Source: Legionella micdadei (lineage in GTDB: Bacteria; Pseudomonadota; Gammaproteobacteria; Legionellales; Legionellaceae). From it: a stretch of 64,000 nucleotides of DNA. Positions 12,002 through 29,012 of the stretch are shown piece after piece. A program made the translations under genes and the position numbers. Numbering within the stretch: the first letter of the stretch is position 1; each line of letters begins with the position of its first letter. The notes beneath the pieces were generated by a model that was not told where the DNA came from, made no database searches, and saw only the letters and a list, made by a program, of their open reading frames with translations. The stretch covers positions 2,905,001-2,969,000 of the forward strand of contig NZ_LN614830.1 of the NCBI RefSeq assembly GCF_000953635.1, given 5' to 3'.

Positions 12002-12068
12002 ATTTGCGCTCTTGCTGTGCAGCAATACAAATATGACGAAAGCAGCGCTTACCTTGGGAGATTTGTTT

Positions 12069-15000
12069 ATGGCCATGGGCGAACTTCTTGATGAATTGAC
12101 ACACACTCTGCCCACCCTATTTTGGAGTATGACCACGGGATTAGCCCGGCTAGGCGCGATCAGCTCGTATTTCATTCGCGACACATTCAGAGCCCATTTT
12201 AACCTTATTGCACAATATACAGCCCCAATTGAACAAGAATTACTAAATAAAAACCCGCCAAAACCGAGTGACTTAAATCCATTAGGACAAATAGCACTGA
12301 CCATTTTCCCTCTGACAATAGTAAGTTGGTTAGCAGCACTAACAGCCGCTCCGTTGATCTATAACTCTGTATTACTTTTTATCGCTGGATTTGTACGCGT
12401 AACTAATTTGGCTTTATTTGACTTACCTAGACGACAAATAAATATCCCTGAAGGAAGTATGCCCTGGTACCGCATCATTTTTGGTCTTCCAGGATTGATT
12501 ATCGGTGGTTCTTTAGGGGCCATTTCAGCGGGGCTAATCAGTTTGGTACGGCTTACAATTAACTCGTTTAAAAGCGGAAAGTATAGTTTTGTCAAAATCA
12601 CCAATTTAGCTTTAGATCAAGATGATTACCTTCTTTTCGATCAAGATGAACGCTCGAAAATAGAGAAGTACGGTTTCGGGCTACCTGGCCTTGTCTTCGG
12701 GGGAATCGTAGGGGCTGTAGGCTTCACCGCCGCAGGTCTTGGACGGGTGGTGATTAACTCCTTTTTTAGTTTCATCAGCATTAATGCTTCCGCATTTAAT
12801 CTCGTTCGCCAAGAAAAATTTAAGGGCGGCCTACAGGACGGGCGTACTCCTTTCCTCATCTATGGCTTAGGTCTCCCCGGGCTCATCTTAGGCAGTATTA
12901 CAGCCCCTGTTGCTATCGCTATCGCCGGCGCTGAGCGCATCGCCATCGAAAGCTGGAAAACCACAAAAGAATTGTTCTTCGCTACTGTTAAACTAGCCTT
13001 ACCCGCTGAACAACCAGAAGAAGCGCAAGAACTGATGGAAGAAGTCAAAAGGGAAAAACGCTCCAAGCTTAATGCCTATGGTTTCGGTGCTCCCGGTGTC
13101 TTACTGGGTGTCCTCTCAGGAAGTATAGGCTTTGCCGGCATTGTTTTTGCCCGTATCGTGGCTAACTCCCTTGCAAGTGGCGCATTCAGTTTCATCCACG
13201 TCACTAATTTGGCTCTCGATCCAAACGATCGCCTTCCTCAAATTCAAGAAGAAGGCTCCAAAATAAAGCGATATGGCTTCGGCTTTCCAGGTATTGTCTT
13301 GGGCGGCATTGCAGGCGGCTTGGGGTTTGCCGTTGCCAGTTTAGGACGGGTGGCTATTAACTCATGGTTTAGTTTCATCGGCCTTAACGCCTCAGCGTTT
13401 AATCTCGTTCGCCAAGAAAAAACCAATCGCGGATTAAAGGACGGGCGTACTCCTTTCCTCATCTATGGTTTAGGCTTTCCCGGACTCATCTTAGGCAGTA
13501 TTACAGCCCCTGTTGCTATCGCTATCGCCGGCGCTGAGCGCATCGCCATCGAAAGCTGGAAAACCACAAAAGAATTGTTCTTCGCTACTGTTAAACTGGC
13601 CTTACCCGCTGAACAACCAGAAGAAGCGCAAGAACTGATGGAAGAAGTCAAAAGGGAAAAACGCTCCAAGCTTAATGCCTATGGTTTCGGTGCTCCCGGT
13701 GTCTTACTGGGTGTCCTCTCAGGAAGTATAGGCTTTGCCGGCATTGTTTTTGCCCGTATCGTGGCTAACTCCCTTGCAAGTGGCGCATTCAGTTTCATCC
13801 ACGTCACTAATTTGGCTCTCGATCCAAACGATCGCCTTCCTCAAATTCAAGAAGAAGGCTCCAAAATAAAGCGATATGGCTTCGGCTTTCCAGGTATTGT
13901 CTTGGGCGGCATTGCAGGCGGCTTGGGGTTTGCTGTTGCCGGTTTAGGACGGGTGGCTATTAACTCATGGTTTAGTTTCATCGGCCTTAACGCCTCAGCG
14001 TTTAATCTCGTTCGCCAAGAAAAAACCAATCGCGGATTAAAGGACGGGCGTACTCCTTTCCTTATCTATGGCTTAGGCCTTCCCGGGCTCATCTTAGGCA
14101 GTATTACAGCCCCTGTTGCTATCGCTATCGCCGGCGCTGAGCGCATCGCCATCGAAAGCTGGAAAACTACAAAGGAAATTTTCATTGCTATCGTTAACCT
14201 AATCTTACCTGCCAAGAAACCAGAAGAATCAACTCAAGAAAGTGCGGAAGAAAACAAGCGCTCTAAACTTGATACTTATGGTTTTGGTGCTCCAGGTTTA
14301 TTGCTTGGGATCATTTCTGGGGGAATAGGATTTGTTGGAATTCTGTGTGCACGTATCCTGATTAATTCATTAATAAGTGCATTGTACATGTTTATCCTCA
14401 TCACGAATAAGGCCCTGGATCCAGCCGATGAGATCCCTCAAATCCAAGATCGTCGCTCTACATTAGAGGTATGTGGCTTTGGGCTGCCTGGACTTTTCTT
14501 AGGCGCACTCATTGGTCGCTTAGGATTTTTTGCTGTAGGTTTAGGACGAATTGCTGTCAATTCATTTTTCACTTTCGTCAACCTTAATGCTGCAGCATTT
14601 AATCTAGTTCGCCAGGAGAAAATCAATCTCGGATTAAGGAACGGGCGTACTCCTTTCCTCATCTATGGCTTAGGCCTGCCTGGGCTTATCTTGGGCAGTT
14701 TTACGGCTCCCATCGCGATTACTATTGCTATTACCGAACGCATCGCTAAGGAAAGCTGGAAAACCACAAAAGAATTGTTCTTCGCTGCTGTTAAACTGGC
14801 CTTACCCGCTGAAAAACTCGGAAAATCATCAGAGCAGGTAGAAGAAAGTAAAAAAGAAAAACGTTCCAAGCTTAATGCCTATGGTTTCGGCGCCCCCGGT
14901 ATTTTGTTAGGGCTTGTGTCAGGGGGAATAGGTTTTACTGCAATTGGTCTTGCACGCACCGTGACTAACTCTTTTATCAGCGGACTAAACAGCTTTATCC

Positions 15001-16595
15001 GCGTCACCAATTTAGCACTGGATCCTAAAAATTACATTAGCCAACCTCTAGATCAACGTTCCAAAATAGAGAAATATGGCTTCGGATTGCCAGGCCTTGT
15101 CTTGGGGGGCATTGTTGGCGGCTTAGGATTTTCTGCCGCAGGTTTAGGACGTGTGGCTACTAATTCATTTTTTACCTTTGTCAGTCTTAACGCTGCAGCA
15201 TTTAATCTGGTTCGCCAAGAGAAAATCAATCGCGGACTTCGGGACGGGCGTAGTCCTTTCCTCATCTATGGTTTAGGCCTTCCCGGACTTATCTTAGGTG
15301 GCATTACTTCCCCTGCAGCTATCGCGATTGCAGTTGCTGAGCGTATCTTCATCGAAAGCTGGAAAACCACTAAAGAATTTTTCTTCGCATTCGTTAAACT
15401 AGCCTTGCCCGCTGAGGAAATAGAAGCACAGGAGCGATCACAACTATCTCAAACAGCGACAGATAATAAAAAGCGCTCTAAGCTTGATACTTATGTTTTT
15501 GGTGCTCCTGGCATCCTGTTGGGTATTCTCTCTGGGGGAATAGGTTTCACCTTCGTAGGTTTACGTCAAGTTGTCACGCATAGTATCGACACAGGCATTA
15601 GAATGTTCACCACCATCGCCAATTTAGGCTTAGTCAATAACGAGCAATTTAACTACAAGCAATTGGAAAAAGAAGATAAGCGTCATTGGCAAGCCAAATA
15701 TCTTTTAGGCTTTCCTGGCGCCTTTATTGGCGCAGGCTTAGGCTTTCTCATGTTGGTAGGAATTGGCTCAGTCAAATTCTTAACGAACACGTTTTACTCT
15801 TGGCTTAGTTTATCCGGCTCCGTATTAAACGGGAGCCTAGAACTACCGTTATTTAGTGGTTTAGCGGGAGATGAACGCACCCAAAACCAAAAAATAATAG
15901 GCGGCCTAGGCTATGTGATTGCATTAGTCAGTACCCTACCCATTGGGGTATTAATTTTAGTAGGCAAAAAAGTTGCTCCTGTGATTGGCGCACTTCTTCT
16001 CGGTGCAATATGCTCACCCTTTGTGGCACTATTGAAGGGGATTAACCAATCGCATAAGAAACCTCGCTTTGAAAATAAGGGCTTAGGCGAAGACGATGAA
16101 AGAATTCAACGATTCAAAAACATTTATTCAGCGCTTACCCCATTAGGACAACTCGCTGAAAACAGCAAAATTCCTGAGCAGCAGAATGGCCGCAAAGGCC
16201 CTCTTTGCTTCACTCGAAAAGCGTTTACTTTCAATATATCAACGGTTACAGAGTATACCCTCGATCAACTTCTATCCGCTTACCGAGCAAGTACTAATAA
16301 AGAGGCTTTTTTTGCATCCGATGGTGAATTCGAAACGGTTCTAGAAAGGGTAAAAGAACACTACAAGGAAATAAGCTGTTTAGACTCTGAGTACCATACC
16401 TCCGCTCGCGATGAGCAGATTGATAGAATCGGGAATTTTGCACGAGATTACATTCTTAACAAAGAAACGACAGTTCCTGATCATTTGTATTCAAGCCCTA
16501 AAAATACGTGGGCTGCAATTTTTTGGGGAAAAGAGCCCAAAAATACTGAGGGATTCCCGAATCCCCAGTTAGGGGTTAATTTGGAGCTCTCTTAG
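12069..16595 (+). CDS. Giant membrane-type protein of Gly/Pro modules (no known family)
   Basis: About 1508 residues. I do not recognise the family. It consists of roughly 17 modules of 60-70 residues, each opening with 'YGxGxPGxxLGxxxG' and continuing into a hydrophobic glycine-rich segment that ends in 'R..xNS' or 'ES'. Three module types follow in fixed order, making five ~201-residue super-repeats, with degenerate modules at both ends. The alternation of glycine-zipper-like hydrophobic stretches and charged linkers suggests repeated membrane insertion. The last ~170 residues are soluble and unlike the repeats. The ATG at 12069 has a good ribosome site (GGGAG, 8 nt away); an ATG at 12033 is possible but has none. 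A secreted host-membrane protein or a surface protein would both fit. Confidence 0.8.
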   Translation: MAMGELLDELTHTLPTLFWSMTTGLARLGAISSYFIRDTFRAHFNLIAQYTAPIEQELLNKNPPKPSDLNPLGQIALTIFPLTIVSWLAALTAAPLIYNSVLLFIAGFVRVTNLALFDLPRRQINIPEGSMPWYRIIFGLPGLIIGGSLGAISAGLISLVRLTINSFKSGKYSFVKITNLALDQDDYLLFDQDERSKIEKYGFGLPGLVFGGIVGAVGFTAAGLGRVVINSFFSFISINASAFNLVRQEKFKGGLQDGRTPFLIYGLGLPGLILGSITAPVAIAIAGAERIAIESWKTTKELFFATVKLALPAEQPEEAQELMEEVKREKRSKLNAYGFGAPGVLLGVLSGSIGFAGIVFARIVANSLASGAFSFIHVTNLALDPNDRLPQIQEEGSKIKRYGFGFPGIVLGGIAGGLGFAVASLGRVAINSWFSFIGLNASAFNLVRQEKTNRGLKDGRTPFLIYGLGFPGLILGSITAPVAIAIAGAERIAIESWKTTKELFFATVKLALPAEQPEEAQELMEEVKREKRSKLNAYGFGAPGVLLGVLSGSIGFAGIVFARIVANSLASGAFSFIHVTNLALDPNDRLPQIQEEGSKIKRYGFGFPGIVLGGIAGGLGFAVAGLGRVAINSWFSFIGLNASAFNLVRQEKTNRGLKDGRTPFLIYGLGLPGLILGSITAPVAIAIAGAERIAIESWKTTKEIFIAIVNLILPAKKPEESTQESAEENKRSKLDTYGFGAPGLLLGIISGGIGFVGILCARILINSLISALYMFILITNKALDPADEIPQIQDRRSTLEVCGFGLPGLFLGALIGRLGFFAVGLGRIAVNSFFTFVNLNAAAFNLVRQEKINLGLRNGRTPFLIYGLGLPGLILGSFTAPIAITIAITERIAKESWKTTKELFFAAVKLALPAEKLGKSSEQVEESKKEKRSKLNAYGFGAPGILLGLVSGGIGFTAIGLARTVTNSFISGLNSFIRVTNLALDPKNYISQPLDQRSKIEKYGFGLPGLVLGGIVGGLGFSAAGLGRVATNSFFTFVSLNAAAFNLVRQEKINRGLRDGRSPFLIYGLGLPGLILGGITSPAAIAIAVAERIFIESWKTTKEFFFAFVKLALPAEEIEAQERSQLSQTATDNKKRSKLDTYVFGAPGILLGILSGGIGFTFVGLRQVVTHSIDTGIRMFTTIANLGLVNNEQFNYKQLEKEDKRHWQAKYLLGFPGAFIGAGLGFLMLVGIGSVKFLTNTFYSWLSLSGSVLNGSLELPLFSGLAGDERTQNQKIIGGLGYVIALVSTLPIGVLILVGKKVAPVIGALLLGAICSPFVALLKGINQSHKKPRFENKGLGEDDERIQRFKNIYSALTPLGQLAENSKIPEQQNGRKGPLCFTRKAFTFNISTVTEYTLDQLLSAYRASTNKEAFFASDGEFETVLERVKEHYKEISCLDSEYHTSARDEQIDRIGNFARDYILNKETTVPDHLYSSPKNTWAAIFWGKEPKNTEGFPNPQLGVNLELS
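12841..14046 (+). repeat. Near-identical 603-bp tandem duplication inside the giant gene
   Basis: The DNA from about 12841 to 13443 is repeated at 13444-14046 with only a handful of substitutions; about 120 bp of a third copy starts at 14047 before similarity falls. The period of 603 bp is exactly 201 codons, so the frame is kept. Flanking super-repeats are much more diverged, so this pair is a recent duplication or has been homogenised by recombination. Confidence 0.9.
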
Positions 16596-16640: not shown

Positions 16641-17501
16641 TTAGCAACTTAAAAGCGCTAAAGCGTTCTTGCGCCAAAGCTCCTCTTTGCGTGCGGCCGT
16701 CAAACTTATTTCATCAAATAAGGCCGTTGAGTAATCAAACCAAGTTTTAATATCCATTTGATTTGTTTGTCCTAAATCAGAACTATAGATCACTCTGGGT
16801 AAATGGCTTAACACCTCGATAAAATCCTCTCTTGTTTGGTGCCCGAGCAAATAAGTCAGCGTCGTTTGCTCAATCCAAACAAAATCATGTTTCGTGATTT
16901 CCTTTAACGCCATCGCTTGTAAATTTGTCAAAGGATTCGCAGGCTGGTTTAGCAATAAAGCAGCTACATGATGTTTAATGCAAGCGTCAATTAAACAATC
17001 GATTTCCTCTTTTGCCGCATGACCTGTAGATACGACAATCGGATAATCAGCAGCCATTTTCAAAATGTCTATTGCTTCTTTCTTAATTTTAAATTTCGCA
17101 TCAAAAAGTGTCTCACTCACCAAGGTGTGGTCAGTTAAATTTTCATGACTTAGTTGGCGAGTCAATTTAGATTGGTATTTACGGCCAGTGATCGTTGGAA
17201 AATCAACAATGAGCTTTGATGGTATTTGCGGCTGATATTCAGCAAGTGCCTGCAGAATTACCCGGTAATTGATTCCTCCTGCAATAGAATTCAAAACAAC
17301 AGAGGGAAAAACCGGCAGCCCTTGTCTTTGACCAAGTGTGGCCTGTATAGAAGTCGAACCTAAATGGCTTCTTAACACCACGGCACCTGCTAACGCTTGG
17401 TAATGACTTCCTGCTTCTAATGCATTGTGGCGTCGGAGATAAAGATCGGGAGATGCGTGATAATGAATATCAATGAATTGATAATCGCATAATGCTTTCA
17501 A
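16641..17501 (-). CDS. Amidohydrolase-like protein (possibly DUF6282)
   Basis: 286 residues. The N-terminal 'FIDIHYHASPD' has the D-x-H-x-H metal pattern of amidohydrolase-superfamily TIM barrels; further candidate ligands are His in 'VVSTGHA' and Asp in 'VIYSSDLGQ'. I start it at a TTG two bases after the upstream stop, preceded by AAGGA at 7 nt; an earlier TTG at 17525 would overlap the upstream gene and lacks a ribosome site. It is the last gene of the six-gene cluster. Hydrolysis of an amide, lactone or related bond is likely; the substrate is unknown. The DUF6282 comparison is from memory and tentative. Confidence 0.65.
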   Translation of the reverse strand: MKALCDYQFIDIHYHASPDLYLRRHNALEAGSHYQALAGAVVLRSHLGSTSIQATLGQRQGLPVFPSVVLNSIAGGINYRVILQALAEYQPQIPSKLIVDFPTITGRKYQSKLTRQLSHENLTDHTLVSETLFDAKFKIKKEAIDILKMAADYPIVVSTGHAAKEEIDCLIDACIKHHVAALLLNQPANPLTNLQAMALKEITKHDFVWIEQTTLTYLLGHQTREDFIEVLSHLPRVIYSSDLGQTNQMDIKTWFDYSTALFDEISLTAARKEELWRKNALALLSC

Positions 17502-17503
17502 GC

Positions 17504-18163
17504 CTATTTCCTTTTGTTGAGCCAAGGCTGGTCATAGCGATAATCCTTGCGCGCCTGCTCTAACGTTGAGCCAGCCTTTACCGCGGTAATAATTTTGCTT
17601 TCAGTGGCCTGTATATTTTCTGCTTTGCTTATCACCTCATCAACTAAATGTTGGGGGATAACCAAAACACCATCGTCATCGCCCAAAATAAAGTCACCCG
17701 GATTGATTGTGACACCATTCACCATTAAGGGGCATTGCTCCGCTGATTTATAAACACGATTTTTCCCCGAACGCATATAAACCGCAGCACAATACACAGG
17801 GTATTTCGCAGCACGGATACAAGCGGCATCTCTCACTGCACCATGTACGATGGTACCCGCTATTTTTTTATGAATAGCCACTTGGGTTAAAATATCCCCC
17901 CAAGTTGTGCAATCACTTCGCCCTTTATTATCAATGACAATCACGGATTTTGCTGGGACAGAATCAATGTAATCCGCAGCCCCTCTAAATGTATTAGGTT
18001 TTTTCTCATATAGAGAATATTGGATTGTATAAGCAGGGCCAATTAATTTAGTGCCAGCGAGAAGCGGCTTGATATTGAGTAAAGCCCCTTCCACACCGCA
18101 AGCATCCAATGCGTCAGATACTTCAGTCGTACTTAATGCTTGTAATCGCTGATATTGGTTCAT
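17504..18163 (-). CDS. RraA-like aldolase/decarboxylase-family protein
   Basis: 219 residues of the RraA/HMG-aldolase fold. Visible signatures are 'WGDILTQVA', then 'GTIVHGAVRDA' with the substrate-binding Arg and metal-binding Asp, and 'GDDDGVLVIP' near residue 155. Members include 4-hydroxy-4-methyl-2-oxoglutarate aldolase/oxaloacetate decarboxylase, and RraA, which inhibits RNase E. The C-terminal extension and position among metabolic genes favour an enzyme. It is 19 bp after the dehydrogenase gene and 2 bp before the amidohydrolase-like gene. Confidence 0.82.
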   Translation of the reverse strand: MNQYQRLQALSTTEVSDALDACGVEGALLNIKPLLAGTKLIGPAYTIQYSLYEKKPNTFRGAADYIDSVPAKSVIVIDNKGRSDCTTWGDILTQVAIHKKIAGTIVHGAVRDAACIRAAKYPVYCAAVYMRSGKNRVYKSAEQCPLMVNGVTINPGDFILGDDDGVLVIPQHLVDEVISKAENIQATESKIITAVKAGSTLEQARKDYRYDQPWLNKRK

Positions 18164-18182
18164 TTTTATTCGTCATTAAAAA

Positions 18183-19277
18183 CTATATTGTTAGGCAATA
18201 ATCAATAATTGCGCTTGCCATCTCTTCAGTTGTACTTTGGCCACCCAGATCATAGCTAACAAAACGGCGTTCTTTTATTACTTGCTTTACTGCCCGTTTT
18301 ACTTTGTCCGCTTGTTTTGCATAACCAAAATGGTTCAACAAAAGACCAATCGTTAGGAACATTGCACTTGGATTAGCGCGGTGGGCTTTGATTCGCGGGG
18401 CACTCCCATGAACTGGTTCAAAATAACCACCGTGTTGACCTATGTTAGCACTTGGAGCAAACCCAAGGCCACCCATTACCCCAGCGCCAACATCGGACAA
18501 AATGTCACCGAACATATTTTCGGCAACAATGACACCGAACTCCTCCGGGCGCCTCACTAACCATAACCCTACTGCATCAACATTTAAAATATCTGCTTTA
18601 ATATGAGGATAATCACTAGCCACCGATTCAAACAGTTCACGCGCGAAAGCACCGCTTTGACGCAGCACATTCGGCTTATCCGCTAAAGTAACACGCGTCA
18701 TCTTATGACGAACTGCATAATCGAAAGCGAACCTAAAAATGCGGGTTAACCCTTTTTTAGTTTGCAAGCGTAAGCTGCAACTAATCTCATTATTTGGCGT
18801 CTCTTGCCAAGCTTGCTTTTCCTGTAACAGACTTTGAAGCGCTGCGGGAAGGGGATAATAATCAAATCCGGAGTATAGTCCTTCTGTGTTTTCCCTGATT
18901 ACACAAAAATTAAAATCTGGACCTTCCGCTTTTATATTAAAACAAGGCCTAACATTTGCGAATAAATCCAATTGCTGTCTCAGTTGTATGATCGGAGAGA
19001 CATAATGCAACTTCGCATGATTTAATTCGATGGCTAATTCAGCCTTGGCCTCTCGTTCAGGCTTGCTCGTTGTTGCACCAAGTAGTGTTGCATCCGCTTG
19101 TTTAATAAGCGCCCACGTCCTTTCTGGTATTGGATTTCCTTCTTTTTGCCAAAATGTCCAACCAATATCACCAAAGCTTAATTCCGCTGGGATATCAAGT
19201 GCTTTAAAAACAGGTATTGCCGCCATTGTCACATCCGCGCCAATACCATCCCCTGGCAAAACTGCTATCTTTATCAA
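18183..19277 (-). CDS. Isocitrate/isopropylmalate dehydrogenase-family enzyme
   Basis: 364 residues of the beta-decarboxylating dehydrogenase family, which oxidises a 2-hydroxy acid and loses CO2. Seen: 'VLPGDGIGADV' at the start, 'RENTEGLYSG' (about 127-136), the Lys/Asn of 'LADKPNVLR', metal-binding aspartates in 'NMFGDILSDVGAG', and 'PVHGSAPRIKAHRANPSA' replacing the usual 'HGSAPDIAGK'. The altered segment suggests a substrate other than isocitrate or isopropylmalate. The start is TTG with GGAG 8 nt upstream, three bases after the hydrolase stop. No leu or lys genes are near, so housekeeping amino-acid synthesis is unlikely. Confidence 0.88.
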   Translation of the reverse strand: MIKIAVLPGDGIGADVTMAAIPVFKALDIPAELSFGDIGWTFWQKEGNPIPERTWALIKQADATLLGATTSKPEREAKAELAIELNHAKLHYVSPIIQLRQQLDLFANVRPCFNIKAEGPDFNFCVIRENTEGLYSGFDYYPLPAALQSLLQEKQAWQETPNNEISCSLRLQTKKGLTRIFRFAFDYAVRHKMTRVTLADKPNVLRQSGAFARELFESVASDYPHIKADILNVDAVGLWLVRRPEEFGVIVAENMFGDILSDVGAGVMGGLGFAPSANIGQHGGYFEPVHGSAPRIKAHRANPSAMFLTIGLLLNHFGYAKQADKVKRAVKQVIKERRFVSYDLGGQSTTEEMASAIIDYCLTI

Positions 19278-19280
19278 GGA

Positions 19281-19979
19281 CTAAGCTCCACAACTTAATT
19301 GTTCTAAGATGAGACTCTTACAATAATCTTGGTTATCTTGTAGAACCCTCATGCTCGCTTCAGGAACAATGACCAAGCGCCCAACTTTCGGCGTTATGAC
19401 GTTATTTCTATTAACCAAATTTGAAAACTCACCAATTAAATGCAAATGATCAACCGTTGAATTGTTAAGAATCTCTGTTGAATCGGTCTCTAAAACACGC
19501 TGCAACCCAAAAATTAAGCGCTTTGACGCGATTTCTAGGTTATATCTTTGATAATCAATTTGCGGTGCCTTATTTGGGAAAAAAACATGATCATAAAGCC
19601 CTTCAAGTGCTTCCACAACGCGATTTCCTTTGCATAGCCGAATTACTTTGCCTAATTTTTCCTGCAATTGGTCATCAGCAAAAGTTGGGGTGGAAAATAG
19701 GACAATCGGCTTTTTCACCTGCTCAAAAAGAACAAAGCATTGCTGAAGGATAACCCCACCAAAAGAGAATCCAAAAAACGCATCATAATTGACAAGTTGC
19801 TTCTCTAATTCGTTTTGCCAAAGTCGATAGTAACCTTCGTTAGGAAGGTTGTCGGCAACGCTCAACGGGTCTACGAAATCAATCTGAAATTCGCAGTTAA
19901 GAAATGACAAGGTCTTGGCTATGTCTTCAATATCAGATTCTTGAGGCATTACTGGGGCAAGAGTTAGTATTTTTTTCAT
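19281..19979 (-). CDS. Alpha/beta-hydrolase-like protein
   Basis: 232 residues. 'GFSFGG' near residue 75 is a nucleophile elbow (G-x-S-x-G-G), and the order of hydrophobic strands fits a compact alpha/beta hydrolase such as a thioesterase. I do not see a convincing catalytic Asp or His near the C-terminus, so the triad may be incomplete or unusual. It lies 32 bp after the aldolase gene and 3 bp before the dehydrogenase start. In this setting it could release or trim an activated intermediate; that is inference. Confidence 0.65.
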   Translation of the reverse strand: MKKILTLAPVMPQESDIEDIAKTLSFLNCEFQIDFVDPLSVADNLPNEGYYRLWQNELEKQLVNYDAFFGFSFGGVILQQCFVLFEQVKKPIVLFSTPTFADDQLQEKLGKVIRLCKGNRVVEALEGLYDHVFFPNKAPQIDYQRYNLEIASKRLIFGLQRVLETDSTEILNNSTVDHLHLIGEFSNLVNRNNVITPKVGRLVIVPEASMRVLQDNQDYCKSLILEQLSCGA

Positions 19980-20011
19980 TTTATTTTCAATTTGAAGCGG
20001 TTGTTTATCGA

Positions 20012-20896
20012 TTATAACGTTTCTTTATAGATTTTAAGATCCGCTGTTGAGAAGTCAGAAATCCCTCTAATAAACTCATCCATCTCAATGCCCTCATGAC
20101 CAATCCCTAGGGCGCTGCGGACGTAATTTGCTGCGGCTAAAATTTCTGGTAATTTATATTTCTTTATGTCTATTGCATGCAAATAAGCGATAAAAAACTC
20201 CGTTTTGAGGTTACCTATCCCTTTGCCCATCCCTGCAAGCGACACATCGATATACTGAGCACCGTGACTCAAAGCAGCTAAAGCATTTGCTTGCGCCAAC
20301 CCTAAATTGTCATGAGCATGAAATCCAAAAGGAATAGGATACTGTTTAGTGTATTTTTTATAAATCGCTTGTATTCTTGAAGGCAGCATGCTGCCATTTG
20401 AATCTGCGAAATAAATCATATTAGGATTATGACAAGAAAGAACCTCGACCGCCTGATCTAATTCATTTTCCTTATAATAAGACATGTGAATTAAATTGGC
20501 TGACGTTTCTAAATCTAACTCCTTCGCCCAAGAAAGAACAGGATATGCCGACTCTACCTGGCCCTTAGCAATGCAAATTCTCAGCAGCGTAATTCCGCAC
20601 GCTTTTAATTCTTCAAGATCACGCTTTTTAACATTTTCAGGGTGTGCCATGACTGCAATCTTTGCATTTTTTATTAATGACCGACAAAAAAGAAGGTACT
20701 CTTTTTCACAAAGTCCAGCCCTGCCTAAATTTTCAATCGGATGCAAAGAACCGTTGCGATAACCTATTTCAATGTATTCAAGACCTGATTGATCAAGCAA
20801 CTTTAAGATTTCTTCTAAGTCCTTGTCATTAAAATGAAAATTCGTTCGATGGCCACCATCTCTTAATGATGCATCTAAAACTTTGATTATATCCAT
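20012..20896 (-). CDS. DmpG-like aldolase (DRE-TIM metallolyase)
   Basis: 294 residues similar to 4-hydroxy-2-oxovalerate aldolase. 'DASLRDGGHRTNFHF' at residues 8-22 carries the metal-binding Asp, the catalytic Arg and the His that marks the DmpG branch. 'FGFHAHDNLGLA' near 195 supplies the metal-binding H-x-H. These enzymes cleave or form a C-C bond using a pyruvate enolate. The usual partner, acylating aldehyde dehydrogenase DmpF, is absent, so a synthetic rather than catabolic role is plausible. It follows the ATP-grasp gene by 34 bp. Confidence 0.82.
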   Translation of the reverse strand: MDIIKVLDASLRDGGHRTNFHFNDKDLEEILKLLDQSGLEYIEIGYRNGSLHPIENLGRAGLCEKEYLLFCRSLIKNAKIAVMAHPENVKKRDLEELKACGITLLRICIAKGQVESAYPVLSWAKELDLETSANLIHMSYYKENELDQAVEVLSCHNPNMIYFADSNGSMLPSRIQAIYKKYTKQYPIPFGFHAHDNLGLAQANALAALSHGAQYIDVSLAGMGKGIGNLKTEFFIAYLHAIDIKKYKLPEILAAANYVRSALGIGHEGIEMDEFIRGISDFSTADLKIYKETL

Positions 20897-20930
20897 TGTA
20901 ATACTACCACTTTCTCTTTGAGCCTATTGC

Positions 20931-22010
20931 TTAGCCAAAGTAGATAAATAATTCATAGAGAAGGCCCAAAAATATTACAAAAAAAATACTTTTTGTATAA
21001 AAATTAACCTTCTTATTAGTATATAGCACATGCAGGTAAGAAAGAGGATGGCGATATATAAGGCTACGCATGATCTTTTTCGTCACGCGAATAGGAATGC
21101 CGCTCATTGGAATTTCATGAATTCTGATACTAGGATTAACATTCATCTCAATAATGACGCCTTTTGATTCTTCAATTGGAACATTAATATCTTCGCATTC
21201 GACATCAATACCAACTAGATCTAAATTTAATATCGTTGCAGCGCGGATGAGCAACTTACTATTTTCTTTACAGATTTGCTTTCCAAGCGATTTAAAAGTA
21301 CCCCCTCTTGTCGCGTTGCAAGTATAAGCTAAAGAGACTCGCTCGTCTTTAGAAGGAATATAATCTACTCCTAATTTCAATTCATTTAATTTGATATAGC
21401 ATTCCTCATCGATCACAATATTTCCCAAGGCATTATTCAGCTTTGCACGCTGCGCATTGGTACGTTTAACCAATTGTTCTATCGTGTGTTTACCATCACC
21501 AACCACATGGGCAGGATATCTGCGGACGACTCCAATTACCCGCTGATTAAAGACAAGCACCCGATAAGACTTTAACCCAGCGTGAAACTCTTCTATGCTT
21601 AGGTATTCATAAAATGGGAAAGTATTCTCTAGATATCGTTTTAATTGCCCGATGTTTTGAATATTACATAGGACATCACGGCCTCGGTAACCATTCTTTG
21701 TGGGCTTTGCAACTAAAGGGAAGGTCAGATCTGCTATTCTTGACTCAAGCTCACCTTTTTCAAATTCATTTGCATGCAATACAGTTGCTTTAGGGACCGG
21801 AATTCCTCCTCTTTCTAGCACTTTATTCATGCAATACTTATTTAAGGCAATACTTGCACAGCAATAATCATTAAATGGAGCATCACCCCCACGGAAATAG
21901 TAATGCTTTTTACCTAGCCTTACTGCAAATCCTTCAATCGTGTTAATCAATTCGGTAGGGAGTAATAAATCTAATGCGCTTTGGTAATAAAGTTCTGCAT
22001 TCTTATCTAT
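20931..22010 (-). CDS. Membrane-anchored ATP-grasp ligase (CphA/GshF-like)
   Basis: ATP-grasp enzyme joining a carboxylate to an amine or similar nucleophile through an acyl phosphate. Seen: ATP-binding Lys in 'PLVAKPTKNGYRGRD', 'IEEFHAGLKSYRVLV', 'RRYPAHVVGDGKHTI' (shared with cyanophycin synthetase and GshF), and metal ligands in 'IIEMNVNPSIRIHE'. A hydrophobic segment close to the C-terminus (last ~20 residues) should anchor it in the membrane. The start is uncertain: the frame is open to a TAG near 22050 with no ATG or GTG. An ATA at 22010 is preceded by AAGAGGA at 7 nt and gives 359 residues; a TTG at 21950 gives 339 but has no ribosome site. First gene of the cluster. Confidence 0.8.
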   Translation of the reverse strand: MDKNAELYYQSALDLLLPTELINTIEGFAVRLGKKHYYFRGGDAPFNDYCCASIALNKYCMNKVLERGGIPVPKATVLHANEFEKGELESRIADLTFPLVAKPTKNGYRGRDVLCNIQNIGQLKRYLENTFPFYEYLSIEEFHAGLKSYRVLVFNQRVIGVVRRYPAHVVGDGKHTIEQLVKRTNAQRAKLNNALGNIVIDEECYIKLNELKLGVDYIPSKDERVSLAYTCNATRGGTFKSLGKQICKENSKLLIRAATILNLDLVGIDVECEDINVPIEESKGVIIEMNVNPSIRIHEIPMSGIPIRVTKKIMRSLIYRHPLSYLHVLYTNKKVNFYTKSIFFVIFLGLLYELFIYFG

Positions 22011-22258
22011 TGCGGAATCCTCTTGCGAAAATTTAAGGTAATCCTAGCATATTTTAGAGAGGAGGGAACCTTCCCCAAAGCACGAACAGGGTAATTGCAT
22101 ACAACAAAATTTTTAATCAATTGAAATAATTATGGTAACTCCTCAGGTACATCATCCTAAGCACGTCTTTTTACGCGAAGGATCACGTGGGGTAGCTCTC
22201 TCTAATATATCCTTGTTATAAATTTTTCCATTCAGGACTAAATGCGAGTTTTATTTAC

Positions 22259-23679: not shown

Positions 23680-25191
23680 TTAATTGCAGTTACGCTTATA
23701 AGCTGCGACTAAACTATTAGAGTTGGATACTGGCAAATCAGTATCTGCGCTCCACATGATTGCTCCTTTCAATCCTTTCTTTTTCACAAATTCGCACACG
23801 GATTTAACGACTTCCGGAGACTGATACCCCACAAATTGCTTACTAGAGGAATTATAGAGATAAGCTCCGGTAATAAATGATTTATTTTCGACATCCAGTG
23901 CATGAACAAGATAACGCGTGTAACCCAGCTCCTTGATTACTCTGTCGACTGATTTATAAGGGAGCATTCCTGCCTGATTGGTATAGGTTGCCGCAAATTG
24001 ACTGGCACCTGTCCAGGGTTGTTCAAAGCCTGGATGCTCGCTATCCTCCCCTTGCTCAACACCCGCAAATCCTCGCCCATAAGCTGCAAGACCGATTTGC
24101 AATTTTTCTTTTGGCATTCCATAAGCCAACACTTGTTCAGTGACCGAGTCCGTAGCGTAAGTTATTGCAAATTCATCTTTACGGCTGGTTTCGGGTTGCC
24201 TAAGATATGCATGAATGGAAGTATAAGGATCGCTATCATGACTCCAAGGACCATGCAAATCATAAGTCATTAAATTAACGCTGTCAGCGTACTGCGAAAT
24301 TTGCTTAAACCAGCCCCCCTCCACCGACTGATTAATCGCTTCTAAGTACTCTTTATTTACCGTGATAGTTACAGAAACATAAGTCTCAGCCCCTAAAGTT
24401 TGTCGGCTGGCTTTAACTAGCTCATACAACCGTTTATAGTCGGCCAACGTCTTCGTATCAGGAGGTAATTGCGCCCCCGTTTGTAAATTAATAGGCGGTT
24501 CGAAATCATAATCCACTCCTTTTAAATTCTTAAAATGCCCCACCCATGATTTAAATTGATTTAAAAATTTGTTTTGATTGGCAAAAATCGCATCGAACGT
24601 GTAACTGCTAATCCCTTTATTACTCACTGTATTTGCACCGCCTATGGCAATGATCCGTTTTGATGCGTACTTGTTTGAATTAATAAAAGCACCAAAACTA
24701 TTAAGCTGGCCTACCCCTTTTTGATCTGTGTAGGTAAATAGCTCCTTTACACCGGTATTCCCATTGACTTGCACTGACGAACAAGCCCCTTCATTCGCAC
24801 GGCAAAACATTAAGAAATCATTGCTTTCAGGCGGTAAAGATACCCAGGAAGCTTCAAATGGCAATTCGCCCCAAAGATCAGAAAAATGCATTAAGCCATC
24901 CCAGGCATTAGGGATCTGGTATTGTGCTTGGTTAGGATCCTTGCTATTCCAGACCTGCATAAAACTCCAAGCTACTACCTCTGCATTGTTAAATTGGGCG
25001 ACCATATCCTGATTGAATACATACTTTAATTGGCCATACGGTTGGCCATTTTTATAGGCCCCGTCGTACTCGTAAGGATTATCACCATACATCGACCATC
25101 CAGTGGTATAGAGTGTCAGTGATGAATTAGCTGCAATAGGAAAAAATAAGACAGCTAATGCGGATAACATGATTGATTTGTGCGTCTTCAT
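23680..25191 (-). CDS. GH18 chitinase
   Basis: 503 residues from the ATG at 25191, which has AAGAGG 5 nt upstream; an in-frame GTG two codons earlier is less well placed. A signal peptide (about 1-24, ending AANSS) is followed by a GH18 barrel. The catalytic signature is 'GVDYDFEPP' (D-x-D-x-E) near residue 215, and 'VNLMTYDLHGPW' supplies the usual M-x-Y-D. C-terminal 'GAIMWSADTD' is the closing strand with the conserved Trp. It would hydrolyse chitin or related beta-1,4-GlcNAc polymers; export through type II secretion is likely in Legionella. Confidence 0.9.
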   Translation of the reverse strand: MKTHKSIMLSALAVLFFPIAANSSLTLYTTGWSMYGDNPYEYDGAYKNGQPYGQLKYVFNQDMVAQFNNAEVVAWSFMQVWNSKDPNQAQYQIPNAWDGLMHFSDLWGELPFEASWVSLPPESNDFLMFCRANEGACSSVQVNGNTGVKELFTYTDQKGVGQLNSFGAFINSNKYASKRIIAIGGANTVSNKGISSYTFDAIFANQNKFLNQFKSWVGHFKNLKGVDYDFEPPINLQTGAQLPPDTKTLADYKRLYELVKASRQTLGAETYVSVTITVNKEYLEAINQSVEGGWFKQISQYADSVNLMTYDLHGPWSHDSDPYTSIHAYLRQPETSRKDEFAITYATDSVTEQVLAYGMPKEKLQIGLAAYGRGFAGVEQGEDSEHPGFEQPWTGASQFAATYTNQAGMLPYKSVDRVIKELGYTRYLVHALDVENKSFITGAYLYNSSSKQFVGYQSPEVVKSVCEFVKKKGLKGAIMWSADTDLPVSNSNSLVAAYKRNCN

Positions 25192-25268
25192 AACCACCTC
25201 TTCGTCATTAATTGTGCAAATTTTATCTTTAGAGGTAATTACTGAACCACTGATATTTTTGACAGGGG

Positions 25269-27401: not shown

Positions 27402-29012
27402 ATGACACTCATTTACAGGGCAGCTAACCTGCGTCTTTATCCTAAAGTCATTAACCACCAGGGTACACATGTATGCCTGGGTGATTTGCATGGAAACGCA
27501 CTTAAATTAATTTACACTTTGATTGAAGAGAATGTCCTTAATATTGACCCGCAACAATATAATGAACTAACAAAAATTTATTTTAAGCCTACTGGTCAAA
27601 TTAATAGCGATGATCTTTTTCGGTTTAGAGCAATTATCGCTAATGCCAAGATTAACAAGGCAAGAGCAGTCACTCTAATTGGTGATGAGTTAGCGGACAG
27701 AGGACAAAATGATTACTTCACTTTATTAGTGCTAAAAAAACTCCACGACGAAAAGGCTAACGTGAATATCATGCTATCTAACCATAGTGTGGAATTCATT
27801 AGAGATTATGAAAGAGAAAAATTTACTGGGCAATACAGACTTCTGGAGGGACAAGGTAGATCGCTTGAGGGCATGCAAACCCTAATCAAAAAAGGCTTGA
27901 TCGACGAAAAAGAAGTTCGAGATATCGTTGAGCAATGTTATCAACCCATGGTTAAGGCAATTGACTATACCCTTACTCCAGAAGGACAACTAACAATATT
28001 CTCACATGCTCCTATCGGACTTGAAACAGTTAAAGCTCTCGCAGAAAAATTTAGAATTCCCTATCGGGATGACAGTATTAGAAATTTAATCCGCACTATT
28101 GATGCAATCAATAAGGTGATTGAAAAACTATCTAAAGAAAAACAATTAGCCCAACTGATTGAATTGGAAGGCCTTGCAAACCCCAATTATCCTATTCCTC
28201 TTACAAAACCTTTGCAGCGGCTAATATGGAATAGAGCCCTAGGTAACGAATTAATGACAGAACCAACAGGTGGATTTAAAGTCAAATTTGTACATGGTCA
28301 TGTCGGTCCTATGAGTGTTTTAAAGAATGGTTCTGAAGCTCTTCCTACCCACGAAAATTTAGATACCCTCTTTGGTAAATCTTTTGAGTGCAGTAAAACG
28401 GGTCCACACGTAACGCATTTAACGAGACACTCTTCTGAAATTACAGCAAAAGAACTTACAGATGAACAATTAAAAGAAATTTCAAGACAATTTTTCAAGG
28501 CCAAATTTAACGAATACTTCGATGAGCTTAAGCTAAAAACCTCCCAACTGATTGATAAGGGAAATAGCAAATCATCTAATTATGATCCCAATTACGCAAA
28601 AGCAGGAAAAGAAGCCGCCATTTTAATCTCTGAACTCAAGCAAGCTGCTGACACTTTCTTTAAAAATACGAAGCCCACAGCAGAAAACTTCATTGCATTT
28701 AAAACCCACTGCGAAAAAGCCATCAGTAACGCTGAAAAAGAGTTTGTTAACCATCGTTCTTGGCATCAACAATTAAGTCCAAGTTTTAGAAGAATTCTTG
28801 GCCTCCTTGCCCTGTTACCCCTAGGCATTCCAGCTTTGGTGATATCATTTAAGTCGCAGTCTGGTTATATTGCAACTTTTTTTGGCAAGCCCTCCACAGA
28901 ATCAGTGGAAAAGTTGCAGACTTTCAAAAATAGATTGAGCAAAATGAATCAAATTTTTGATGAGGAAATTATAGAAAATGAGTTGCCAACAAATAAATTA
29001 GGTGACCGGTAA
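27402..29012 (+). CDS. PPP-type metallophosphatase, probable Dot/Icm effector (Wip-like)
   Basis: 536 residues. The N-terminal ~300 hold the calcineurin-like motifs in order: 'CLGDLHGN' (about 27), 'IGDELADRG' (about 95), 'LSNHSVEF' in place of GNHE (about 128), His in 'FSHAPIG' (about 204), and 'FVHGHVGP' (about 298). This suggests a Mn/Fe-dependent phosphoprotein phosphatase similar in layout to Legionella WipA/WipB. A hydrophobic pair near 465-485 could bind host membranes. The C-terminus contains an acidic 'DEEIIENE' stretch, the E-block type export signal. The gene is monocistronic under a PmrA-like box. Phosphatase fold likely; substrate (Tyr or Ser/Thr) unknown. Confidence 0.75.
   Translation: MTLIYRAANLRLYPKVINHQGTHVCLGDLHGNALKLIYTLIEENVLNIDPQQYNELTKIYFKPTGQINSDDLFRFRAIIANAKINKARAVTLIGDELADRGQNDYFTLLVLKKLHDEKANVNIMLSNHSVEFIRDYEREKFTGQYRLLEGQGRSLEGMQTLIKKGLIDEKEVRDIVEQCYQPMVKAIDYTLTPEGQLTIFSHAPIGLETVKALAEKFRIPYRDDSIRNLIRTIDAINKVIEKLSKEKQLAQLIELEGLANPNYPIPLTKPLQRLIWNRALGNELMTEPTGGFKVKFVHGHVGPMSVLKNGSEALPTHENLDTLFGKSFECSKTGPHVTHLTRHSSEITAKELTDEQLKEISRQFFKAKFNEYFDELKLKTSQLIDKGNSKSSNYDPNYAKAGKEAAILISELKQAADTFFKNTKPTAENFIAFKTHCEKAISNAEKEFVNHRSWHQQLSPSFRRILGLLALLPLGIPALVISFKSQSGYIATFFGKPSTESVEKLQTFKNRLSKMNQIFDEEIIENELPTNKLGDR

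What the first reader, a model, noticed from the sequence alone, without database searches (positions are those of the whole stretch)
16641..22010. Six-gene candidate pathway: ATP-grasp, DmpG-like aldolase, hydrolase, dehydrogenase, RraA-like, amidohydrolase
Six minus-strand genes with gaps of 2-34 bp combine a C-C bond-forming or cleaving aldolase, a beta-decarboxylating dehydrogenase with an altered HGSAP region, an RraA-like aldolase/decarboxylase, two hydrolases and a membrane-anchored amide-forming ligase related to cyanophycin synthetase/GshF. No standard amino-acid or aromatic-degradation pathway uses this set: DmpF, leu and lys partners are absent. A plausible scheme: aldolase and dehydrogenase build an unusual oxo or hydroxy acid, the ATP-grasp enzyme couples it to an amine at the membrane, and hydrolases trim or recycle. 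The families are established; the pathway and product are inference.
Basis: partly seen in the sequence, partly recalled or inferred. Interest (0 to 1): 0.75.

Follow-up and report, generated by a model that had tools for sequence, protein, structure and literature searches.

The report
Conserved unexplained five-enzyme metabolic pathway
Six neighbouring genes in a Legionella-family bacterium contain a set of five enzymes that recurs, in the same combination, in distantly related bacteria, which points to a shared chemical pathway whose product is not known.

Summary
Observation confirmed: six tightly packed minus-strand genes at 16641-22010 (gaps 2-34 nt). The dehydrogenase is fused to RraA in 17 of 28 family loci and followed by a CinA-like domain in 9 of 11 type B loci. 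The ATP-grasp is not core: elsewhere flavin monooxygenases or the CinA-like domain stand in its place. The 'hydrolase' seems to lack its catalytic triad; the other four core enzymes keep their catalytic residues. Substrate, product and direction are unknown; I favour biosynthesis of a small acid (0.55) over catabolism (0.3). Seven congeners keep only the aldolase, which tells against strict dependence. Side finding: the ATP-grasp gene appears to begin at AUA/AUC/AUU in 16 of 51 homologues, the window's among them. Structure prediction could not be run.

The parts
20931..22010 (-). ATP-grasp ligase related to the ATP-grasp part of cyanophycin synthetase; C-terminal hydrophobic tail; apparent non-canonical ATA start at 22010
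22019..22024 (-). Shine-Dalgarno-like AAGAGG, 8 nt upstream of the ATA codon
   Evidence: sequence
20012..20896 (-). HMGL-type (DmpG-like) aldolase, core gene; metal residues D13, H193, H195 kept
19281..19979 (-). alpha/beta-hydrolase-like (BioH-like) protein with degenerate triad, core gene
18183..19277 (-). isocitrate/homoisocitrate/isopropylmalate-type dehydrogenase, core gene; catalytic set intact, NAD-selecting Asp absent; TTG start
17504..18163 (-). RraA-like aldolase/decarboxylase, core gene; fused to the dehydrogenase in 17 of 28 family loci, separate here
16641..17501 (-). DUF6282 protein (amidohydrolase-like metal-site pattern), core gene; HxH, H, H, D kept; TTG start 2 nt after the RraA stop

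Best explanation
The block is the Legionellaceae form of a widespread orphan metabolic module. SHOWN by comparison: a five-gene core (aldolase, hydrolase-like protein, dehydrogenase, RraA, DUF6282) travels as a unit; dehydrogenase and RraA are one polypeptide in many species; tailoring genes differ by lineage. INFERRED: the core makes a small acid building block. The aldolase makes (or cleaves) a 4-hydroxy-2-oxo acid from a pyruvate-type donor. The dehydrogenase oxidises a 2-hydroxy-3-carboxy acid with a small apolar side group, probably not with strict NAD. Its labile oxaloacetate-type product passes straight to RraA, which decarboxylates it or performs a retro-aldol step; this is why the two are fused. 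DUF6282 opens or closes a lactone or amide, or hydrates, at a metal site. The hydrolase-like protein does a non-hydrolytic step or is a binding or scaffold partner. In Legionellaceae a tail-anchored ATP-grasp ligase then joins the acid to an amine at the membrane, in limiting amount because of its weak start codon.
For: Co-localisation of all five in 51 of 60 scanned loci, of four in 54 of 60. Legionellaceae members form one clade in trees of all five core proteins; type C does so in three of five. IDH::RraA fusion in 17 of 28 (both domains). A CinA-like region follows the dehydrogenase in 9 of 11 type B loci, in one open frame in at least five of them (L149, L169, L171, L172, L176; domains named for L149). 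Dehydrogenase residues S94, R100, R110, R128, Y135, K201, D234, D258, D262 identical in 61 of 61 rows (57 distinct); RraA R111 and D112 in 62 of 62 rows (57 distinct); DUF6282 HxH in 65 of 66 rows (one gap) and D250 in 66 of 66 (62 distinct); aldolase D13, H193, H195 in 61 of 61 (56 distinct). Triad loss in the hydrolase-like protein. For biosynthesis: a Bcr/CflA-type MFS gene beside 6 of 11 type B loci; MFS-like genes within the flanks of 13 of 21 type C loci (families g22 and g26, named by my reading of one sequence each); an ATP-grasp ligase in type A; sporadic occurrence, 9 of 199 genomes in one genus.
Against: No substrate or product evidence. The enzyme families are at least as typical of catabolism. 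The type C monooxygenase resembles SfnG and RutA, which are catabolic. I saw no transporter inside the Legionellaceae clusters. Seven congeners keep the aldolase alone, without close dehydrogenase or DUF6282, so it can serve something else. The aldolase position that matches DmpG's catalytic His (recalled) is Tyr in all type B and C rows that cover it. In the DUF6282 and hydrolase-like trees type C is not one clade. The fusion label changes 5 times on the tree, but well-supported branches force only 1. The hydrolase-like protein is not detected in 3 of 11 type B loci.
Confidence: 0.55

Rival explanations
1. The core is a catabolic pathway that breaks down an uncommon hydroxy or oxo polycarboxylic acid, or a ring derived from one. 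In Pseudomonas the flavin monooxygenase first cuts a C-N or C-S bond; DUF6282 opens a lactone or amide; the dehydrogenase, RraA and the aldolase yield pyruvate.
For: RraA-type aldolases and amidohydrolases pair up in known aromatic-acid degradation (recalled LigI/LigJ/LigK; the window RraA scores 69.6 bits against ligK_PcmE). The type C monooxygenase scores best against SfnG and RutA, with a RutF-like reductase, all below cut-off. LysR-type genes stand beside several type C clusters (my reading).
Against: I saw no conserved uptake system in the flanks (most flanking genes were not named by a family search); exporter-type MFS genes instead. An ATP-grasp ligase stands in place of the monooxygenases in Legionellaceae; most type B loci have neither.
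Confidence: 0.3
2. The six genes are an operon of partly independent enzymes: dehydrogenase, RraA and DUF6282 form one small pathway, while the aldolase and the ATP-grasp have other roles.
For: The aldolase is kept alone in 7 of 22 genomes of the genus, within the Legionellaceae cluster aldolases in the tree. ATP-grasp relatives occur in 48 of 140 family genomes (E 1e-50), DUF6282 in 34 of 140 (E 1e-10), with extra copies elsewhere.
Against: The aldolase stays with dehydrogenase, RraA and DUF6282 in all three layouts, 54 of 60 loci.
Confidence: 0.12
3. A standard pathway in disguise: leucine/lysine-type chain elongation, or the DmpFG lower meta-cleavage pathway.
For: The best NCBIfam hits are homoisocitrate dehydrogenase (AksF2, 302.3 bits) and 4-hydroxy-2-oxovalerate aldolase (PRK08195, 164.2 bits).
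Against: Both lie below the curated cut-offs (540 and 229 bits). No aconitase-type isomerase among the six genes and no DmpF in the genome. The aldolase is 294 aa against 344 and 334 positions of the aldolase models.
Confidence: 0.03

Closest known systems
Protocatechuate 4,5-cleavage lower pathway (LigI/LigJ/LigK; recalled)
   Same: pairs an amidohydrolase-type enzyme with an RraA-type aldolase
   Different: no ring-cleavage dioxygenase among the core genes; adds an Iso_dh-type dehydrogenase and a DmpG-like aldolase; RraA scores 69.6 bits against ligK_PcmE (cut-off 304.5)
DmpFG / BphIJ aldolase-dehydrogenase pair
   Same: HMGL-type aldolase with DmpG-like metal residues (roles recalled)
   Different: no DmpF in the genome; the position of DmpG's catalytic His is Tyr in types B and C
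Homoisocitrate / isopropylmalate / isocitrate dehydrogenases
   Same: superfamily and complete catalytic set
   Different: apart from the family's other Iso_dh proteins; NAD-selecting Asp absent in 57 of 57; W239 in 56 of 57; fused to RraA or a CinA-like domain
PDB 3k4i, 'uncharacterized protein' (I recall it as a Pseudomonas syringae structural-genomics entry)
   Same: matches the RraA profile of this module, E 2.4e-89: almost certainly an orthologue
   Different: no function in the entry name
Cyanophycin synthetase and GshF ATP-grasp domains
   Same: ATP-grasp core aligns over about 264 residues (7wac E 2.2e-37)
   Different: 359 aa against about 900, so the other domains are absent; has a hydrophobic tail
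BioH-type alpha/beta hydrolases
   Same: profile match to 4nmw, whole-sequence E 1.1e-4, though each stretch alone is weak (0.89 and 1.4)
   Different: Ser nucleophile is Ala in 30 of 57 distinct sequences; the acid position is Ser in 57 and the His position Gly or Ser in 57

Membership tests
4-hydroxy-2-oxovalerate aldolase (DmpG) | score over curated cut-off (TIGR03217, 286 bits) | tested here: not met
   147.1 bits
4-hydroxy-2-oxovalerate aldolase (DmpG) | divalent-metal residues Asp, His, His (recalled) | tested here: met
   D13, H193, H195 in 61 of 61 rows, 56 distinct
4-hydroxy-2-oxovalerate aldolase (DmpG) | partner acylating aldehyde dehydrogenase DmpF | tested here: not met
   0 matches to TIGR03215 in the genome; the same search found 2 of 14 control genomes, none over cut-off
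Iso_dh superfamily | Pfam match over cut-off and catalytic Arg/Tyr/Lys/Asp set | tested here: met
   266 bits against 27; residues in 61 of 61 rows
homoisocitrate dehydrogenase (AksF2, NF040626) | curated cut-off 540 bits | tested here: not met
   302.3 bits
RraA-like aldolases | Pfam PF03737 and Arg-Asp motif | tested here: met
   120 bits against 24.5; R111 and D112 in 62 of 62 rows
4-carboxy-4-hydroxy-2-oxoadipate aldolase (LigK) | TIGR02798 cut-off 304.5 bits | tested here: not met
   69.6 bits
DUF6282 | Pfam PF19799 over cut-off | tested here: met
   154.2 bits against 26.8; profile match to five other DUF6282 proteins, probability 99.6
metal-dependent amidohydrolases (Amidohydro_2) | detectable homology | tested here: inconclusive
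   no match of A1 to one Amidohydro_2 protein; no solved structure matched the A1 profile (only a chance-level hit at E 0.69); a weak C-terminal Amidohydro_2 match inside another DUF6282 frame (5.9e-4); no structure could be predicted
serine alpha/beta hydrolases | Ser-Asp-His triad | tested here: not met
   Ser 27 of 57 distinct sequences; acid position Ser in 57; His position never His in 57; positions come from a weak profile alignment, not from a structure; Pfam hydrolase models match at most 2 of 22 members, weakly
cyanophycin synthetase | curated cut-off 850 bits / full domain set | tested here: not met
   202.6 bits over one domain
known characterised gene cluster | published description of this gene combination | tested here: inconclusive
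   none found in ten searches of the open library; most subscription papers are not held

The most novel reading that the evidence does not exclude
An undescribed cross-phylum pathway in which a dehydrogenase-RraA relay makes a new acid building block, a catalytically dead alpha/beta-hydrolase performs or chaperones a non-hydrolytic step, and each lineage bolts on its own finishing enzyme; in Legionellaceae that enzyme is a membrane-tethered ligase kept scarce by an AUA/AUC/AUU start codon, a form of initiation control that I recall for very few bacterial genes (such as infC).
Probability: 0.35. Interest if true: 0.78.

Novelty: new variant of a known kind. Interest (0 to 1): 0.6.

Why it matters
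One member, RraA, apparently already has a solved structure without a function. It gives the uncharacterised family DUF6282 a context, marks an alpha/beta-hydrolase-like protein that probably cannot be a serine hydrolase, and offers a gene family in which non-AUG initiation can be followed across species.

Tried and rejected
DlpA: I recalled an L. pneumophila 'DlpA' of the dehydrogenase family as a possible known relative; the one passage found calls it citrate-synthase-like (PMC4229970, one passage by find), so I made no link.

Literature: ten searches gave no description of the cluster. In PMC554113 (one passage) and PMC3247240 (one passage) nearby DC3000 locus tags appear, but the link of those tags to this cluster is recalled and the passages say nothing on its function. 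All other papers were seen as listings only.

Plasmid collection: of 29 records with DUF6282 matches, one is a Legionella (47.5%; L. adelaidensis, generic product names) and the rest are about 24-35% identical. One dehydrogenase search of plasmids at E 1e-60 found only the same Legionella record. Eight distant DUF6282 loci (L115-L122): my first look by open frames was unreliable in GC-rich DNA, so I repeated it with tblastn: DUF6282 at 24-28% identity in all eight, no core partner in seven; L122 has a short aldolase-like match (35%) and an MFS-like one. That repeat also showed the complete core, dehydrogenase included, in L123.

Structure: structure prediction was asked 15 times; every call returned 'machine is busy', so there is no model and no fold search in this report.

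Promoter and terminator scan: no signal above shuffles (18 against 15.4 with sd 4.3; 7 against 5.3 with sd 2.3).

Rows dropped: only single matches covering at least 75% of a query were aligned; translations with internal stops (IDH 1, RraA 2, AHyd 2, Hyd 1) were set aside. Counts include four to five species present twice; one search gives distinct numbers. Trees used 39 of 55 loci that have aldolase, dehydrogenase, RraA and DUF6282 (every second type A locus; 37 for the hydrolase-like protein). In the start-codon tally only homologues aligned from within the first 8 residues and past residue 280 were used (51 distinct genes).
Full report
WHAT IS THERE. Six minus-strand frames stand at the stated place with gaps of 34, 32, 3, 19 and 2 nt. 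Pfam places five in known superfamilies; every NCBIfam model listed for them scores below its curated cut-off; the hydrolase-like protein matches nothing in either search. The window lies in a 3.31-Mb single-contig genome; the closest named relative at this locus is Legionella maceachernii (DUF6282 82% identical).

CONSERVATION IN THE FAMILY. In the genus, 19 of 22 genomes have an aldolase match at E 1e-20, 18 of them at 57-100% identity. The dehydrogenase of this kind is in 11 of 22, always beside aldolase, hydrolase-like, RraA and DUF6282 genes; in one of the 11 (L039) aldolase and hydrolase-like genes are broken. Across the family DUF6282 relatives occur in 34 of 140 genomes and 6 of 33 genera. 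Of 30 such genomes whose neighbourhood I read, 28 hold all five core genes together; two (G129, G139) hold DUF6282 alone. The ATP-grasp is directly upstream in 23 of these 28; it is not at the site in three, separated in one and possibly off the contig in one. Dehydrogenase and RraA are one polypeptide in 17 of 28 and separate in 11, the window's among them; a fused one shows both Pfam domains.

BEYOND THE FAMILY. A named scan of the 84,980-species collection with two short patterns from the DUF6282 alignment gave 60 loci; relatives without those patterns would be missed. By tblastn: type A, 23 Legionellaceae or related MAG loci, all with five core genes (L129 with broken ones). Type B, 11 loci (Pseudomonas kilonensis, Pseudoalteromonas, Pseudosulfitobacter, a Rhodospirillales MAG, five Bartonella, Prauserella, a Micrococcales MAG): aldolase, dehydrogenase, RraA and DUF6282 in 11, hydrolase-like protein in 8, a CinA-like region after the dehydrogenase in 9, a Bcr/CflA-type MFS gene in 6; Prauserella also has NMO-like and ABM-like matches. 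Type C, 21 loci (16 Pseudomonas, two Burkholderia, Halomonas, Serratia, one unnamed gammaproteobacterium): five core genes in 20 (the other starts at a contig end), luciferase-like monooxygenase in 21, NMO/FabK-like in 21, a small antibiotic-monooxygenase-like protein (my label; no NCBIfam match) in 21, flavin reductase in 15. Five loci hold DUF6282 only or a fragment. So all five core genes are together in 51 of 60 and four, without the hydrolase-like protein, in 54 of 60. The module is sporadic: 9 of 199 genomes in the genus of G618, a genome that matches Pseudomonas sp. GM50; in a sample of 398 genomes of the phylum 10 carry any DUF6282, and of the nine besides the window's only G618 has the partners. 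The hydrolase-like protein was found in 1 of 369 class genomes, the window's own; that search used the single Legionella sequence and would miss relatives at 25% identity.

CO-INHERITANCE. In quick maximum-likelihood trees type A is one clade for all five core proteins; type C is one clade for dehydrogenase, aldolase and RraA, but not for DUF6282 and the hydrolase-like protein; type B is a clade only for RraA, with moderate support. The dehydrogenases stand apart from other Iso_dh proteins of Legionellaceae (the root is weak at 73 and the outgroup branches are long).

ACTIVE SITES (catalytic roles are recalled from the families). Dehydrogenase: the substrate arginines, Tyr, Lys and three Asp are identical in all 61 rows (57 distinct); the loop before the first Arg reads S-P-(I/V/L)-(I/L/V), apolar as I recall it in isopropylmalate dehydrogenase; the NAD-selecting Asp is absent in 57 of 57 (Arg in 22 of 31 Legionellaceae, Ala in 14 of 19 type C). 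Aldolase: metal residues kept; the position of DmpG's His is His in 27 of 30 distinct type A (Asn in 3) and Tyr in all 25 type B and C that cover it. RraA: Arg-Asp kept in all. DUF6282: HxH, His, His and Asp kept, except one gap and one Leu; the wider DUF6282 has His-Pro where this clade has Gln-Pro. Hydrolase-like protein: its profile finds BioH (4nmw, 1.1e-4 for the whole sequence, 0.89 and 1.4 for its two stretches), and through that alignment the nucleophile is Ser in 27 of 57 (type A only) and Ala in 30, the acid is Ser in 57, the His is Gly in 48 and Ser in 9. A serine-hydrolase mechanism is therefore unlikely; the fold itself rests on this weak match.

HOW IT PROBABLY WORKS. Fusion of dehydrogenase and RraA argues for direct hand-over of a labile 2-oxo-3-carboxy acid, the kind of compound RraA-type enzymes decarboxylate or split. 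Exporter-type neighbours, a ligase in one lineage and oxygenases in another suggest a building block that is finished differently, which I prefer over catabolism (0.55 against 0.3). No step has been measured.

AGAINST. Seven genomes of the genus keep an aldolase that falls among the Legionellaceae cluster aldolases but lack close dehydrogenase and DUF6282: in one (L029) three flanking families are kept and the other five genes are gone from the site; in six it lies elsewhere. Hence the aldolase has, or can take, another use. All five Bartonella loci show at least one core gene split between frames in the tblastn pieces, so the module is decaying there or the sequences carry errors.

START CODON. 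The ATP-grasp frame has its conserved N-terminus before any canonical start. Among 51 distinct homologues, cluster members and paralogues, 18 have ATG and 1 GTG at exactly the aligned first codon; 16 have no ATG/GTG/TTG between the upstream in-frame stop and that codon, and there the codon is ATA (11), ATC (3) or ATT (2); seven of these 16 have no canonical codon within the first 40 either. The other 16 of 51 have a canonical codon somewhere upstream. In the 16 without one, codons 2-20 vary as coding sequence does (0.27, 0.19, 0.51 by codon position) while the 39 nt upstream do not (0.64, 0.57, 0.65). A Shine-Dalgarno-like stretch was matched by my simple rule in 9 of 16. The exact codon is not proven: another non-canonical codon within a few positions is possible. 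That such codons initiate poorly and under IF3 control is recalled from infC; whether it holds here is untested.

LIMITS. Direction, substrate and product are open; no structure could be predicted; the literature check covers only the open library.

Noticed in passing
window 22010 (minus strand) and L192, L193, L203, L204, L206, L207, L209, L213, L215, L217, L220, L072, L073, L133, L168: The ATP-grasp gene appears to start at ATA/ATC/ATT instead of ATG/GTG/TTG in 16 of 51 homologues, with an in-frame stop 4-12 codons upstream; ATG stands at the same position in 18 others.
   Followed up: yes
G000:C1:390744-391799 and 172206-173276; L091, L092, L093, L094, L071: The ATP-grasp family has extra copies elsewhere, some in tandem; in L071, L091, L093 and L094 one lies beside a methyltransferase-like gene (Pfam score just below cut-off).
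   Followed up: partly
L029; L033-L038: Solo copies of the pathway aldolase in seven genomes that lack close dehydrogenase and DUF6282; six share one alternative site beside a Dps/ferritin-like gene (my reading).
   Followed up: partly
L171, L174, L175, L178, L182 (Bartonella): The core is present but at least one core gene is split between reading frames in all five Bartonella loci; the hydrolase-like gene is not detected in L178.
   Followed up: no
L149:7085-9244, L169, L176: Fusion of the dehydrogenase with a CinA-like (MoCF_biosynth) domain; its role here is unknown.
   Followed up: partly
window 12012-16595 (+): A 1527-aa protein made of repeated GFGxPGxxxGG-like units (my reading); its two Pfam matches (DbpA, CinA_KH) have no stretch that passes alone; no tandem DNA repeat scored.
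   Followed up: no
window 23680-25197 (-) and 27402-29012 (+): A glycosyl hydrolase family 18 (chitinase-like) protein and a WipA-like phosphatase-domain protein.
   Followed up: no
L190 (NZ_LR134433.1): A 365-kb record labelled plasmid of L. adelaidensis carries the cluster together with eno and pal, so it may be a chromosomal piece.
   Followed up: no
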